A DNA stretch of 64,000 bases from a gamma proteobacterium symbiont of Taylorina sp. (GTDB taxonomy: Bacteria; Pseudomonadota; Gammaproteobacteria; GRL18): contig JAHXIV010000017.1 in NCBI GenBank assembly GCA_025655455.1, positions 58,665 to 122,664 of the forward strand. The letters run 5' to 3'. The notes below the pieces were generated by a model. It was not told where the DNA came from. It did not search any database and was given only the letters and a program-made list of their open reading frames with translations. Below are positions 40,597 to 56,455 of this stretch, piece after piece. Made by a program: the position numbers and the translations under genes. Position 1 is the first letter of the stretch. Every line of letters starts with the position of its first letter.

Positions 40597-41562
40597 ATGA
40601 CAGCACAGCAACCCTTTCTATGGTACAACTATCTTGCACCAAAATACTGGCCATCCTGGCTTGGTCTTGGTGCTATGCGCATTGCAGTAATACTACCCTA
40701 TCGTATACAGCTTATGTTTGGATTTTCCATCGGTCATCTATTTTATCTGTTGGGAAAATATCGGCGTAAAGTGGTACAAACAAATATTCAACTATGTTTC
40801 CCTGAATTATCTGCACAGCAACAGGAACAATTGGTCAAAAAACATTTTCATTCCGTAGGCATGGGACTGATTGAAATTGCCATGAACTGGTGGGGGCAAG
40901 CCGATCAACTGAAAAAGCTGGTCACCATAAAAAATTACCACTATATTGAAGAAGCTTTAAAACGAGGTCAGGGCATTATTGTTTTAGGAGCTCATTATAC
41001 TACAGTTGAACTCAGTGCCCGTTTTATTACCCTGGACAATAAATTTGCAGCCAGTTATCAGAGCATGCGAAACCCAATCTTTGATCATTACACCATGCAG
41101 GCACGTTACCGGAATTTTGATCAAGTATTCGCACGTGATGAAATTCGTCAGACTTTTCGTTATATCAAACAAGCTAATGTTGTCTGGATTGCTGCTGATC
41201 AGGATACCGGTATTGATAATAGTGAGTTTGTACCTTTTTTTGGCCAACTGGCAGCCACCCAGACCGTGGCTTCACGTATGGCAAAAATTACTAAAGCGGC
41301 AATTATTCCTTATTATTCCAGACGTCTGAAAGGGACTCAGGGATATGTGATGGAGTTTTTTCCTCCTCTGGAAAACTTTCCGGGAAATTCTTTAAAAGAA
41401 GATGCTGTTCGCACCAATCAAATACTGGAGGAATTCATCAGGCAGGCACCTGAACAATATCTATGGACACATCGCCGTTTTAAAACACGACCCGAAGGTG
41501 AGGCAAAGCTGTATTCTAAAAAACCCCGTAGAGTTAATAGAAACAAGAGCACACAAAAGTGA
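40597..41562 (+). CDS. LpxL/HtrB-family lipid A acyltransferase (first copy)
   Basis: A 321-residue inner-membrane late acyltransferase that adds a secondary acyl chain to Kdo-lipid A. The catalytic HX4E motif is seen in VLGAHYTTVEL, and AADQDTGIDNSEFVPFFG and YLWTHRRFKTRPEGE are family hallmarks. One N-terminal TM segment (about 30-50) is present. The C-terminus ends in a basic tail. It is the first gene of a three-gene operon: the next gene starts with GTG overlapping its TGA. A second, shorter LpxL-like protein follows, suggesting the two use different acyl positions or donors. Confidence 0.92.
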   Translation: MTAQQPFLWYNYLAPKYWPSWLGLGAMRIAVILPYRIQLMFGFSIGHLFYLLGKYRRKVVQTNIQLCFPELSAQQQEQLVKKHFHSVGMGLIEIAMNWWGQADQLKKLVTIKNYHYIEEALKRGQGIIVLGAHYTTVELSARFITLDNKFAASYQSMRNPIFDHYTMQARYRNFDQVFARDEIRQTFRYIKQANVVWIAADQDTGIDNSEFVPFFGQLAATQTVASRMAKITKAAIIPYYSRRLKGTQGYVMEFFPPLENFPGNSLKEDAVRTNQILEEFIRQAPEQYLWTHRRFKTRPEGEAKLYSKKPRRVNRNKSTQK

Positions 41563-42347
41563 AAGATGAATATTTCAATACAGCTGAAACCAGGCAGTTG
41601 TTAGAACACAGTCAGCTCTCTCAGTTTGAACAAATCTGGGCGCTGGACACTGACTGGTTTGAGCCGCCAAACTACAGACGAAATGGCTGGAGTGGTGTAA
41701 TTAAATATCCTTTAACTGACAGCAATGGAAAAACCACATGGGTTTTCATTAAGCGTCAGGAAAATCATAACTTCAAAACACTCTGGCATCCATTTAAAGG
41801 AATACCCACTTTTCGACGTGAATATAACAATATAAGGCATTTAACAAACAAGCAAGTACCAACATTGACTACCTTATACTATGGCGAGCGTTCCAGAGAT
41901 GGCAAAGATCAGGCCATTTTAATCACACAATCACTGGAGGGCTACCAGAGTTTTGAAGAATTTTTTGCTGATAATACAAAAGAGATTCCACAACGCTCTG
42001 AGATCATGAAACTAGCCGGCCAGATCATACGCAAAATGCATGATGCCCATTTTCGCCATAATTGTCTGTATGCAAAACATTTATTTGTCAGCTGCAATGC
42101 CGATAATACTGACACTATTGAGATTCGACTGATCGATCTTGAAAAATTAAAATGGCTGCCGTTATTAAAACAAATAAGAAGAAATGATCTATCACGGCTA
42201 ATCCGAAGAGGCGAGCCACTGATCTATAATGATCTGAAGAAAATACTCTACAGCTATTATCGATCTGGACAAGATCTACATAACAGCACTTTAGCATCAG
42301 AACTCAACACTTTGCTGGAACATCAGGAAAGGTATCAGACTCCTTAA
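41559..42347 (+). CDS. Lipopolysaccharide kinase (InaA/Kdo-kinase-like)
   Basis: A 262-residue protein-kinase-like enzyme of the LPS kinase (Kdo/WaaP/InaA) family. The VFIKRQ strand provides the ATP-binding Lys, HDAHFRHNCLYAKHLFV is the catalytic loop and RLIDLEK replaces DFG. It probably phosphorylates an inner-core sugar. It starts with GTG at 41559 inside the previous stop codon (GTGA), and its own stop overlaps the next ATG (TAATG). The sandwich between two LpxL homologues supports a lipid A-core role; which residue is phosphorylated cannot be told. Confidence 0.85.
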   Translation: MKDEYFNTAETRQLLEHSQLSQFEQIWALDTDWFEPPNYRRNGWSGVIKYPLTDSNGKTTWVFIKRQENHNFKTLWHPFKGIPTFRREYNNIRHLTNKQVPTLTTLYYGERSRDGKDQAILITQSLEGYQSFEEFFADNTKEIPQRSEIMKLAGQIIRKMHDAHFRHNCLYAKHLFVSCNADNTDTIEIRLIDLEKLKWLPLLKQIRRNDLSRLIRRGEPLIYNDLKKILYSYYRSGQDLHNSTLASELNTLLEHQERYQTP

Positions 42348-50606: not shown

Positions 50607-50984
50607 TCAGGGAGTATACTTATATACTTTTAAACCGCTAATGGGTTCAAAATGTTTGATATTAGCAGTACAGAGGTTTTCGTCATGTTTAATTGCCGTA
50701 GCTGCCATTAATGCATCACCCATTTCAACACAATGACTCAAGGAAAATTGCCTGACATATCTCCTTGCATTATTAGAAATATGGCTATCAATCTCATATA
50801 TTTTGAAATGAAGTGCTGTTAATAATTGTTCAAATTTTTTTAATTCTGCCTTATTTCGGCAAAATGGAACATATTCCATATAAGTCACAGCAGAAATTGA
50901 TCGTTTAGTTGTTTCTAATAATAGTTGTCTGGCACTTTCTACACCTCTGTCAGCATAGATAAAAATATTAGTATCAAATATCAT
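50607..50984 (-). CDS. PIN-domain toxin (VapC-like ribonuclease)
   Basis: A 125-residue PIN-domain endoribonuclease. The acidic site is seen as D4 (MIFDTNIFIY), E37 (VTYMEYVPF), D90 (EMGDALMAATA) and N108 (TANIKHF). Length and ending LKVYKYTP fit VapC-type toxins. The ATG overlaps the antitoxin gene by 11 nt. The gene follows directly on its antitoxin, inside the polysaccharide locus, and ends 4 nt before the transferase start. Confidence 0.9.
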   Translation of the reverse strand: MIFDTNIFIYADRGVESARQLLLETTKRSISAVTYMEYVPFCRNKAELKKFEQLLTALHFKIYEIDSHISNNARRYVRQFSLSHCVEMGDALMAATAIKHDENLCTANIKHFEPISGLKVYKYTP

Positions 50985-51246
50985 TCAATGTTCTTCTTCT
51001 TCCCTTTCTAATCTCACGCAACTCACTTTCAACAACATCAGAAGAAGCACTAAAATTTGGTCCTTTGTGCATGCCAAAAAACTGATTCATAGCTTCGACC
51101 TGATGAAGTTTATCTTCACCGGAAGAAACAGGCATAACGATACCTAAAGGTTGACCATGATAAGAAAGATTGACGGTTTCTCCCCGTTTTAAAGCATCTA
51201 TCAGAGCCTTATGCTGAGTTTGTAATTGTGTTGCCGTAATATTCAT
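50974..51246 (-). CDS. Phd/YefM-type antitoxin
   Basis: A 90-residue protein with the Phd/YefM start (MNITATQLQTQHKALIDALKRGE) and the beta hairpin VNLSYHGQPLGIVMPV, typical of antitoxins that bind their own promoter. The C-terminal half (about 60-90), rich in charge and Glu/Arg, would mask the PIN toxin active site. The gene starts upstream of and overlaps the toxin gene, and the promoter must be within 51247-51297. Family assignment from sequence character. Confidence 0.82.
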   Translation of the reverse strand: MNITATQLQTQHKALIDALKRGETVNLSYHGQPLGIVMPVSSGEDKLHQVEAMNQFFGMHKGPNFSASSDVVESELREIRKGRRRTLNDI

Positions 51247-54644: not shown

Positions 54645-54850
54645 ATTAAATATTTACTCACAAAGGACATATTTTACCTAAACAACTCAGTTGAACTGTA
54701 ACGTGAATGTCTAAGGTGCTGCAGCTTGGGCATTCAAATTAGATTTAACTGAATTATTTATGTTTAAGAGAATATATAATTTTATACCCTATAAAAGAAA
54801 CTATGATAAAATTTTACCTCATAGTGAAAAATAAAACAGGATAAGTGTCA

Positions 54851-55066
54851 ATGGGAGAAAAAATTAAAACATTATCTCATGGAAAAATACTGAATATTGA
54901 TTTTGAAGTAGAACTTAATCACCCGCCATCAAAAGGTCAGGATAAGCAGATTCACATCCAGTCTGAACAATTTCGATTTGAAATAGATAGAAAAGACTAT
55001 ATTAAATATGCATTATCTGTTCTTGTTGCTGAAAAAAATCTGAAGCAGCTGAAGGGGATTGAATGA
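54851..55066 (+). CDS. Small uncharacterised protein with a domain shared with its third neighbour
   Basis: A 71-residue acidic-basic protein. I do not recognise it, but its segment from residue 30, KQIHIQSEQFRFEIDRKDYIKYALSVLVAEKNLKQLKG, resembles residues 30-67 of the 250-aa protein two genes downstream. The ATG at 54851 is preferred over the in-frame GTG at 54845: the AGGA at 54838-54841 lies 9 nt upstream of the ATG but only 3 nt from the GTG. It overlaps the nucleotidyltransferase gene by 4 nt, so it is the first gene of a coupled cassette. Confidence 0.75.
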   Translation: MGEKIKTLSHGKILNIDFEVELNHPPSKGQDKQIHIQSEQFRFEIDRKDYIKYALSVLVAEKNLKQLKGIE

Positions 55067-55701
55067 GTGACAAGACAGCTGAATTAGAATTAATTTTTAA
55101 TTTACTACAACAGAATGATATCAGCTATCTGGTTTTGAGAGGATTTGATGAAATTCCCGAAAAAGTGAGCTATACAAATGATCTGGATTTATTATGTGCA
55201 ATAGAAGATAAAGATAAATTAGCCCGGCTTTTTAAACAATCAGGATATCGCATTTATCAGGATTCTCTATTTCATCATACCTACCTTTATGCTGCGCTCC
55301 CGCATCAGCATTTCAGGTGTAAGAAAAAAGATTTGCACATTGATATAGTTTATAATCTTGCCTACAAAAGCCCTAACAAGGGTGAATGGGTATCCATTCA
55401 TGAAAATCTGCAACAATCAATATGGCAGAATAAAAGACAAGTGGACAAATTCTGGCTATTTCAACCCTCCTATCATGATGAATTAATACATCTGATCTGT
55501 CATTGTATTTTTGATAAACGGGAGTTCAAAGCAAAATACATTCAGCGCATTGGATATTTATTTGCTAAAGTGAATCAAATACAGCTGAAAAATGATTTAG
55601 AATTGATTTTTTTTAAATACACACATTCTTTAACAGAGCAGATAAAAGAAAAAAATTACAAACACATCATTCACAATTATTTAGCCTTTAAAGAGTATTA
55701 A
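55063..55701 (+). CDS. Nucleotidyltransferase-fold protein (NTP_transf_5-like)
   Basis: A 212-residue protein with the nucleotidyltransferase core: GFDEIPEKVSYTNDLDLL contains the first metal-binding Asp pair (D40, D42), and KKDLHIDIVYN supplies the third acidic position (D94). It resembles the NTP_transf_5 group often encoded in polysaccharide and lasso-peptide loci. The start overlaps the small gene upstream. It probably modifies a sugar, phosphate or protein acceptor, but its product is unknown. The gene ends 1 nt before the next. Confidence 0.8.
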   Translation: MSDKTAELELIFNLLQQNDISYLVLRGFDEIPEKVSYTNDLDLLCAIEDKDKLARLFKQSGYRIYQDSLFHHTYLYAALPHQHFRCKKKDLHIDIVYNLAYKSPNKGEWVSIHENLQQSIWQNKRQVDKFWLFQPSYHDELIHLICHCIFDKREFKAKYIQRIGYLFAKVNQIQLKNDLELIFFKYTHSLTEQIKEKNYKHIIHNYLAFKEY

Positions 55702-55702
55702 A

Positions 55703-56455
55703 ATGAGCAATCCGGCAGTGATAACACTGGATGATGAAAGCAGCCGAATCGGTAGATTCAAACGATTTGTTCTGGAAGATAACATCGGTGAATCAATTCA
55801 TTTACATATTGATAATATGAGAGTTGATTTTACAATCAATGAGTTCCTGGAATTTTCTGATATCATCCGTTCATCACTACTGGAACTTGATATTCTCAAA
55901 GGTTTTTCTTTAAATCATTTTGATGAATCCTTCTTAAAAGACTGTGCTCCCTTATTATCCTCTCTTGACAAAATAGAAATTGAAGAAATTGAACTCTCAT
56001 CGCTACGATGTGTTATCCGAACAGAGTTGAAATATGGCCTGAATCAGGTGAGCCTGGCTACCATTGCTGATTCACCTGCTTATCAATATCTGGAAGGCAA
56101 TAAACAGGAACTACTAAAGTATCATCAGTTTAACTATTTAAGTCTGGACAATGAACAAAGACTTCTGCAATTATTATCTTCCATCAAAGAAAAAAAATAT
56201 CCCTATAATAATCAATATATTGTTTTATTTAATGGGCAGAATATTATAAGAGATGGTCAGCATCGAGCAGCCATCCTGGCTCATTTATATGGACTGAATT
56301 ATAAAATAAACATTGTAAGATTTTACTTTCATGGAAGGAAACATCAGATCAATATCTATAAAAGTAATTTAAAAAATATCACACTCTGGTCTGCTACAAA
56401 AATTTTCCGTGTTGTTAAACCTCAGCTAAAGAGAATCATTGCAAAGATACGATAA
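55703..56455 (+). CDS. DGQHR-motif (ParB/sulfiredoxin-like) protein in the polysaccharide locus
   Basis: A 250-residue protein with two parts. The N-terminus (about 25-70) resembles the 71-aa protein at 54851 (IHLHIDNMRVDFTINEFLEF). The C-terminal half (about 110-210) contains FNGQNIIRDGQHRAAILAHLYG, a nucleotide-binding GxxRH-like motif of the ParB/sulfiredoxin fold (R183, D184, G185, H187, R188). Such domains bind CTP or ATP or act as small kinases. The tail is very basic (last 40 residues). It converges on the double glycosyltransferase 2 nt away. A kinase or phosphotransferase acting on glycan is an inference. Confidence 0.72.
   Translation: MSNPAVITLDDESSRIGRFKRFVLEDNIGESIHLHIDNMRVDFTINEFLEFSDIIRSSLLELDILKGFSLNHFDESFLKDCAPLLSSLDKIEIEEIELSSLRCVIRTELKYGLNQVSLATIADSPAYQYLEGNKQELLKYHQFNYLSLDNEQRLLQLLSSIKEKKYPYNNQYIVLFNGQNIIRDGQHRAAILAHLYGLNYKINIVRFYFHGRKHQINIYKSNLKNITLWSATKIFRVVKPQLKRIIAKIR

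What the first reader, a model, noticed from the sequence alone, without database searches (positions are those of the whole stretch)
54851..56455. Three-gene cassette: domain protein, nucleotidyltransferase, ParB/Srx-like protein
The 71-aa protein and the N-terminus of the 250-aa protein share a domain of about 38 residues (IHIxxxxxRxxxxxxxF/YxxF/Y), and between them sits a nucleotidyltransferase. The 250-aa protein has RDGQHRAAIL, a ParB/sulfiredoxin nucleotide-binding motif. The genes are coupled (4-nt overlap, then 1-nt gap) and point away from the flippase. This suggests a transfer system that modifies the polysaccharide by phosphate or nucleotidyl groups, with the small domain as recognition unit.
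Basis: partly seen in the sequence, partly recalled or inferred. Interest (0 to 1): 0.65.

Follow-up and report, generated by a model that had tools for sequence, protein, structure and literature searches.

The report
Mobile twin-domain nucleotidyltransferase module, glycan loci
Three coupled genes inside a surface-sugar gene cluster belong to an apparently undescribed enzyme kit, two sister mini-domains plus a nucleotide- or phosphate-transferring enzyme, that recurs in distant bacteria, an archaeon and virus-derived sequences and probably decorates sugars or related surface molecules with phosphate-containing groups.

Summary
Three tightly coupled genes (S 71 aa, N 212 aa, P 250 aa) sit between wzx and glycosyltransferase genes. 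N is an NTP_transf_5 nucleotidyltransferase with a conserved D-x-D...D active site. S and the N-terminus of P carry the same domain (profile-profile E 1.8e-8). The identical S-N-P operon, always in glycan loci, occurs in three Campylobacterota and three Omnitrophota places. Beyond it, the two sister domains (A = S type, B = P type) form a mobile pair: A|N|B, A|N|B-kinase-like, A|N|glycosyltransferase-B, B|A-N (Haladaptatus, an archaeon), A-B tandem, A-B-ParB-like, and A-B-nucleotidyltransferase-APH kinase in one chain. I read this as a phosphotransfer/nucleotidyltransfer module: the A.B pair is the constant scaffold or recognition unit, N the nucleotidyltransferase, and the DGQHR part of P the equivalent of the kinase. 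A ParB/Srx identity for P itself is not proven (no Pfam hit, poor model); it rests on motif order and on a relative with A-B fused to a recognisable ParB domain. Substrate and chemistry are inferred. The nearest functional precedent is the lasso-peptide kinase/nucleotidyltransferase pair PsmK/PsmN. The domain pair has no name in Pfam, NCBIfam, PADLOC or PDB.

The parts
54851..55066 (+). S: 71-aa stand-alone domain A (predicted beta-beta-beta-beta-alpha)
   Evidence: ORF; relatives 59-79% identical in six other S-N-P operons; AlphaFold2 pLDDT 86.9, strands 4-13, 16-24, 33-38, 42-46, helix 47-68
54902..55051 (+). segment of S homologous to the N-terminal domain of P
   Evidence: HHalign prob 95.4, E 1.8e-8; shuffle control
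55063..55701 (+). N: nucleotidyltransferase, NTP_transf_5 (PF14907)
   Evidence: E 3e-9, above the gathering score; start overlaps the S stop by 4 nt
55180..55188 (+). D40-L-D42 of N, catalytic D-x-D
   Evidence: invariant in 14/14 N homologues from bacteria, virus contigs and an archaeon
55342..55344 (+). D94 of N, third acidic residue
   Evidence: D in 13/14, E in Haladaptatus
55687..55698 (+). C-terminal FKEY of N; the last residue is Tyr in all homologues
   Evidence: Y at the extreme C terminus in 14/14; possible docking tail (inference)
55703..56455 (+). P: 250-aa protein, domain B fused to a DGQHR (ParB/Srx-like) domain
   Evidence: ORF; 49-56% identity to L004 and L003
55703..55906 (+). 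domain B of P (residues 1-68): MSNPAVI...EDNIGESIHLHIDNMRVDF...
   Evidence: 51-79% identity across seven operons; E-D-N-x-G-E-x-I-H-x-H-x-x-N-x-R invariant in bacteria, virus contigs and Haladaptatus
55985..56338 (+). DGQHR domain of P (residues about 95-212), ParB/Srx-like by motif order
   Evidence: related 144-aa stand-alone protein in an L. plantarum EPS locus, tblastn E 5e-6; ParB_N comparison weak
56249..56278 (+). RDGQHRAAIL motif
   Evidence: sequence; kept in 5 of 7 operons, degenerate in two Omnitrophota (RYGQSF, RYGHAE)
54645..54850 (.). 206-bp divergent intergenic region between wzx and S; expected to hold the operon promoter
   Evidence: no sigma-70-like site above chance; AGGA about 9 nt upstream of the S ATG

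Best explanation
S-N-P is a horizontally moving three-gene enzyme module that modifies a glycan, or the molecule that carries it, during surface-polysaccharide synthesis. S (domain A) and the N-terminus of P (domain B) are two copies of one small fold. They pair into a composite domain that recognises a conserved ligand and holds the catalytic units together. The C-terminal part of P (ParB/Srx-like, DGQHR) does the job that a kinase does in sister modules: it phosphorylates the acceptor, or activates it using a nucleotide. N then transfers a nucleotidyl or other phospho-linked group onto that phosphate. Shown: the domain homology, the operon and its conservation, the conserved N active-site residues, and the recurrent linkage of A, B, nucleotidyltransferase and kinase or ParB-like domain, including single chains. 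Inferred: A.B pairing, the phosphotransferase role of P, the order of steps and the acceptor.
For: (1) Seven S-N-P operons in Gammaproteobacteria, Campylobacterota and Omnitrophota, same order and coupling, all next to wzx, GT2, GT9 or sugar-nucleotide genes. (2) A and B are homologous and are the best-conserved parts (mean identity 65% and 66% against 40% for N and 45% for the rest of P), with correlated divergence (r 0.80, n = 7 operons; S also correlates with the rest of P, r 0.78). (3) A and B travel together in other arrangements: A|N|B or A|N|B-kinase-like in virus-collection contigs, B|A-N in Haladaptatus, A-B-nucleotidyltransferase-APH kinase in one chain, A-B-ParB in one chain, A-B tandem. 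(4) Kinases recur: APH E 3.9e-17 in the fusion, weak Pkinase E 0.002 in virus-locus proteins, a GT2-HPr-kinase-like gene directly upstream of the L004 cassette (E 0.016). (5) N active-site residues conserved. (6) Precedents: PsmN puts hexoses on a Ser phosphorylated by PsmK (PMC9266682, PMC8498205); SerK, annotated as ParB, is an ADP-dependent kinase (PMC5120207).
Against: P has no detectable Pfam hit and its model is poor. Two of seven P proteins have lost the D, H and R of DGQHR, so catalysis by that motif is not universal. The S-N-P operons have no conventional kinase of their own. The Haladaptatus copy lies beside sugar-metabolism rather than glycan-assembly genes. There is no substrate evidence. 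That PsmN itself belongs to PF14907 was not tested here.
Confidence: 0.45

Rival explanations
1. The DGQHR domain is an NTP-dependent switch, not a phosphotransferase: it binds CTP, ATP or GTP and, through the A.B pair, turns the nucleotidyltransferase (or neighbouring glycosyltransferases) on and off.
For: [quoted passage not shown] Two operons with a degenerate motif persist. An A-B-ParB chain exists without a recognised nucleotidyltransferase gene directly beside it.
Against: Elsewhere the same slot holds kinase-like domains, which suggests catalysis. ParB membership of P itself is unproven.
Confidence: 0.2
2. Domains A and B are not a docking pair but ligand-binding modules (for example for a lipid-linked sugar or another phosphorylated ligand), each recruiting its own enzyme to the same substrate.
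For: Many invariant polar residues in B (E-D-N-x-G-E-x-I-H-x-H-x-x-N-x-R); fusions to different enzymes (GT8-like, kinase-like, DGQHR).
Against: A and B nearly always occur together, including in tandem in one chain, which favours a two-part domain; the two ideas are not exclusive.
Confidence: 0.2
3. S is the acceptor: a small carrier protein that N and P modify, with the modified protein taking part in glycan assembly.
For: S is small and strongly conserved; lasso-peptide nucleotidyltransferases modify peptides (PMC8498205).
Against: S is a predicted compact fold, not a leader/core peptide; its relatives are fused to the enzymes themselves; the conserved residues do not include an obvious single acceptor.
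Confidence: 0.1
4. Toxin-antitoxin or anti-phage defence cassette inserted in the O-antigen locus.
For: Nucleotidyltransferase plus small protein is a known toxin-antitoxin pattern (general knowledge); a PIN-domain gene lies nearby (50607-50984).
Against: No PADLOC hit for any part; all seven operons sit in glycan loci; the small domains are fused to glycosyltransferase-like and kinase-like proteins.
Confidence: 0.05

Closest known systems
NTP_transf_5 (PF14907) nucleotidyltransferases
   Same: N belongs here by score and by D-x-D...D residues
   Different: accompanied by a paired small domain; conserved C-terminal tail ending in Tyr; function of the Pfam family itself uncharacterised
PsmK/PsmN of the lasso peptide pseudomycoidin (kinase, then nucleotidyltransferase-like phospho-glycosylation)
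   Same: phosphotransferase plus nucleotidyltransferase acting together; kinase/nucleotidyltransferase linkage in sister modules
   Different: no lasso genes seen among the cassette's neighbours; A/B domains; DGQHR domain instead of an HPr-type kinase in S-N-P; shared PF14907 membership not tested
ParB/Srx fold: ParB CTPases, SerK (ADP-dependent serine kinase)
   Same: motif order helix(LLSSIKEKKY)-strand-IIRDGQHRAA; a sister A-B fusion has a recognisable ParB domain (E 3.3e-8 in a single-sequence search; Pfam E 0.0097, below cut-off)
   Different: P itself scores no ParB family; DGQHR rather than GERRxRA; no ParA or parS context
PUR repeats (Pur-alpha; B. burgdorferi Bpur)
   Same: four strands then a helix, about 70 aa, two repeats needed for one domain (PMC2954813); several PUR entries among the best Foldseek matches, TM up to 0.62
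   Different: no significant Foldseek E-value (best 0.36), no Pfam PUR hit; no reason to expect nucleic-acid binding

Membership tests
NTP_transf_5 (PF14907) | Pfam gathering score | tested here: met
   37.3 bits against 31.2, E 3e-9
NTP_transf_5 (PF14907) | D-x-D and a third acidic residue of the nucleotidyltransferase fold | tested here: met
   D40/D42 in 14/14, D94 in 13/14 homologues
ParB/Srx fold | family profile match for P | tested here: not met
   no Pfam hit for whole P or for the C-terminal part at E up to 10
ParB/Srx fold | collinear profile alignment with ParB_N | tested here: inconclusive
   51 columns including SI-helix and DGQHRAA, score 21.1 against shuffles 10.9 +/- 2.0, but prob 6% and an unrelated control (domain A) reaches 20
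ParB/Srx fold | three-dimensional fold | tested here: inconclusive
   model pLDDT 49.6, pTM 0.42; no meaningful Foldseek match
ParB/Srx fold | ParB domain in a sister protein with the same A-B pair | tested here: met
   L099:6083-7099(-), ParB HMM E 3.3e-8 (single-sequence search), Pfam ParB_N E 0.0097 at 210-271, below Pfam's cut-off
PUR repeat | beta4-alpha topology | tested here: met
   S model pLDDT 86.9
PUR repeat | significant structural or sequence match | tested here: not met
   Foldseek best E 0.36; no Pfam PUR hit
PUR repeat | intertwined dimer of two repeats | not testable with these tools
   no complex prediction available
kinase/nucleotidyltransferase tailoring pair (PsmK/PsmN-like) | kinase linked to the nucleotidyltransferase | tested here: inconclusive
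   met in the single-chain fusion (APH E 3.9e-17), likely in virus contigs (weak Pkinase); in the window only the DGQHR domain fills this slot
kinase/nucleotidyltransferase tailoring pair (PsmK/PsmN-like) | phospho- or nucleotidyl-transfer activity | not testable with these tools
   needs biochemistry
anti-phage defence system | match to a PADLOC model | tested here: not met
   no hit for S, N, P or sister proteins

The most novel reading that the evidence does not exclude
A cross-domain module built round an undescribed paired domain (A.B). The pair is a constant two-part adaptor that couples an interchangeable nucleotidyltransferase with interchangeable phosphotransferases or glycosyltransferases, and so defines a new class of phospho-decoration of surface glycans (and perhaps of small metabolites in archaea) that viruses also carry.
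Probability: 0.4. Interest if true: 0.8.

Novelty: new variant of a known kind. Interest (0 to 1): 0.62.

Why it matters
O-antigen and exopolysaccharide loci hold many genes called 'hypothetical' whose chemistry is unknown. Here a sequence rule (domain A + nucleotidyltransferase ending in Tyr + domain B) picks out one coherent module across bacteria, an archaeon and virus-derived contigs. Natural gene fusions point to what it does, phosphotransfer followed by nucleotidyl- or phosphoglycosyl-transfer, and make it testable with three small proteins. It would also give the uncharacterised family PF14907 a biochemical handle.

Tried and rejected
Pairwise BLAST of S against P: nothing; only profiles show the homology. 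AlphaFold2 of P: too few sequences, pLDDT 49.6, so its Foldseek list was discarded. ParB_N profile against P: above shuffles but hardly above an unrelated control, left as inconclusive. Replacement of N between two types: N has a long branch (about 1.2 substitutions per site) separating window/G390/G591 from the four other operons, while S and P do not. N rejects the S+P tree (AU p 1e-5), but S+P does not reject the N tree, and a clade of all seven bacterial N is not rejected, so a swap is suggested, not shown. L047 (one domain-B 'hit' inside a 3333-aa protein) discarded. No cultured phage holds the module. A 'DUF3276' (bacterial PUR) set for a direct comparison could not be obtained. Toxin-antitoxin/defence reading: no PADLOC support. 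BFVD structure search with S: nothing significant. Virus-collection scan with the DGQHR part: no relative. Promoter scan: nothing above chance.

Full report
WHAT IS THERE. The three ORFs are as described: S 54851-55066, N 55063-55701 (ATGA overlap with S), P 55703-56455 (1-nt gap). They lie on + between a wzx-type flippase on - (Polysacc_synt 1.3e-30) and a run of glycosyltransferases, downstream of lipid A/core genes including a Kdo/WaaP kinase (41559-42344). GC is 32-34%, a little below most of the flanks. P is absent from 95 relatives, including 15 genomes of the same genus, and its profile hits only this genome among 369 of the class. The cassette is therefore patchy in this lineage, most simply by horizontal acquisition (inference).

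THE SHARED DOMAIN IS REAL. S and P cannot be aligned by BLAST. With relatives added, domain A (S) and domain B (P 1-68) match at prob 95.4, E 1.8e-8 over 44 columns; the score is 41 against a shuffled mean of 10.3 and maximum of 20.6. S is predicted with good confidence as four antiparallel strands and a long helix (pLDDT 86.9). In P the same strand-strand-strand-helix order is predicted, in a low-confidence model.

THE OPERON RECURS. One genome-collection scan found the operon in a Campylobacterales MAG (L003) and an Omnitrophota MAG (L004). Profile searches added a second copy in the first, another Campylobacterota genome (contig of 1.68 Mb) and two more Omnitrophota (one on a 580-kb contig, so a binning accident is unlikely). 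All seven keep S-N-P order and coupling. All sit among wzx, GT2, GT9 (PF01075 confirmed in two), nucleotide-sugar or other glycan genes. Mean identity is 65% for S and 66% for domain B, but only 40% for N and 45% for the rest of P. The most constant things are therefore the two small domains. The DGQHR motif is kept in five operons and degenerate in two (RYGQSF, RYGHAE). A stand-alone 144-aa relative of the DGQHR part lies in an L. plantarum plasmid exopolysaccharide locus (YDGQHRATVL).

THE WIDER MODULE. Searching with domains A and B gave further arrangements. (a) IMG/VR contigs: A|N|B, A|N|B fused to a kinase-like protein, A|N|kinase-like|B, and A|N|GT8-like-B, the last with a kinase-like gene downstream. 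(b) A Haladaptatus plasmid (archaeon), two copies: B followed by A fused to the nucleotidyltransferase. (c) A genus in another class of the same phylum, six genomes: in the two read in full, one chain of 811-814 aa with A, a second A/B-like repeat (weak: E 0.013-0.04), nucleotidyltransferase-like sequence (GSDVDILI) and an APH kinase (E 3.9e-17); the small domain and GSDVDILI were read in all six, the kinase part in two. (d) Omnitrophota: one chain A-B-ParB (Pfam ParB_N E 0.0097; HMM of real ParB proteins E 3.3e-8) and one A-B tandem protein directly after a flippase-like ORF. There is no match in cultured phages. Phage hallmark genes on the IMG/VR contigs were not tested, so 'virus-derived' rests on that collection's own classification.

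MECHANISM. N has its active-site residues (D-x-D...D) in every bacterial and virus-contig copy and ends in a conserved terminal Tyr. Single-chain proteins that join A, B, a nucleotidyltransferase and a kinase, or A, B and a ParB domain, argue that these parts act together (a Rosetta-stone argument). Where the window has a DGQHR domain, sister modules have a kinase-like or ParB domain. A ParB-like protein can be a kinase (SerK, PMC5120207) or an NTP-binding module with varied specificity (PMC12704722). The only experimentally studied kinase/nucleotidyltransferase pair I found is PsmK/PsmN, which phosphorylates a peptide Ser and then adds hexoses to the phosphate; one review leaves open whether PsmN is a glycosyltransferase or a nucleotidyltransferase (PMC9266682, PMC8498205). 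The most economical reading is: the A.B pair binds the acceptor and holds the enzymes; P (or a kinase) phosphorylates or activates; N adds a nucleotidyl or phospho-linked group. The glycan as acceptor is inferred from context.

LIMITS. Direct ParB/Srx membership of P is unproven. The PUR-repeat resemblance of S is topological only. Frequencies are from samples: domain B in 4 of 398 Pseudomonadota, 5 of 384 Omnitrophota and 2 of 249 Campylobacterota genomes. No metagenome scan was available, and the collections are not the whole of sequence space. The novelty claim rests on Pfam, NCBIfam, PHROGs, PADLOC and PDB having no such family, and on a limited paper search, not on a full literature search.

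Noticed in passing
50607-50984 and 50974-51246 (-): PIN-domain gene (PF01850, E 2.8e-11) with a small Phd/YefM-like gene upstream (by eye), a VapBC-like pair inside the O-antigen locus between wecA-like and SDR genes.
   Followed up: partly
L080:5189-7624 and L081:6181-8625: 811-814 aa chains joining two small domains, nucleotidyltransferase-like sequence and an APH kinase, directly after a PPK2-like gene in L080 (by eye); six genomes of one genus have the chain's N-terminal part.
   Followed up: partly
L099:6083-7099 (-): A-B-ParB fusion with a VNGHHRY motif in an Omnitrophota glycan locus.
   Followed up: yes
L017:9408-10193, L022:8763-11051: Virus-collection contigs rich in glycan genes: GINT1_N-like (PF24793, E 9e-29) proteins, GNAT, methyltransferase-like, GT2 and kinase-like proteins beside the module.
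   Followed up: partly
N homologues, C terminus (window 55687-55698): Every nucleotidyltransferase of the module ends exactly at a Tyr (FKEY, FKDY, YGDY and the like), an unusual conserved C-terminal residue.
   Followed up: partly
L024:7076-7288: Domain A matches phrog_17331 (unknown function, 477 positions) weakly (E 5e-4), so larger phage proteins may contain it.
   Followed up: no
L005:6210-10438: L. plantarum pMK01 exopolysaccharide locus interrupted by IS30 elements next to the DGQHR relative.
   Followed up: no
L006 and record NZ_CP120472 at about 25 kb and 586 kb: The Haladaptatus plasmid carries the B|A-N gene pair twice with the flanking fba and DUF362 genes repeated too, suggesting a large duplication.
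   Followed up: no
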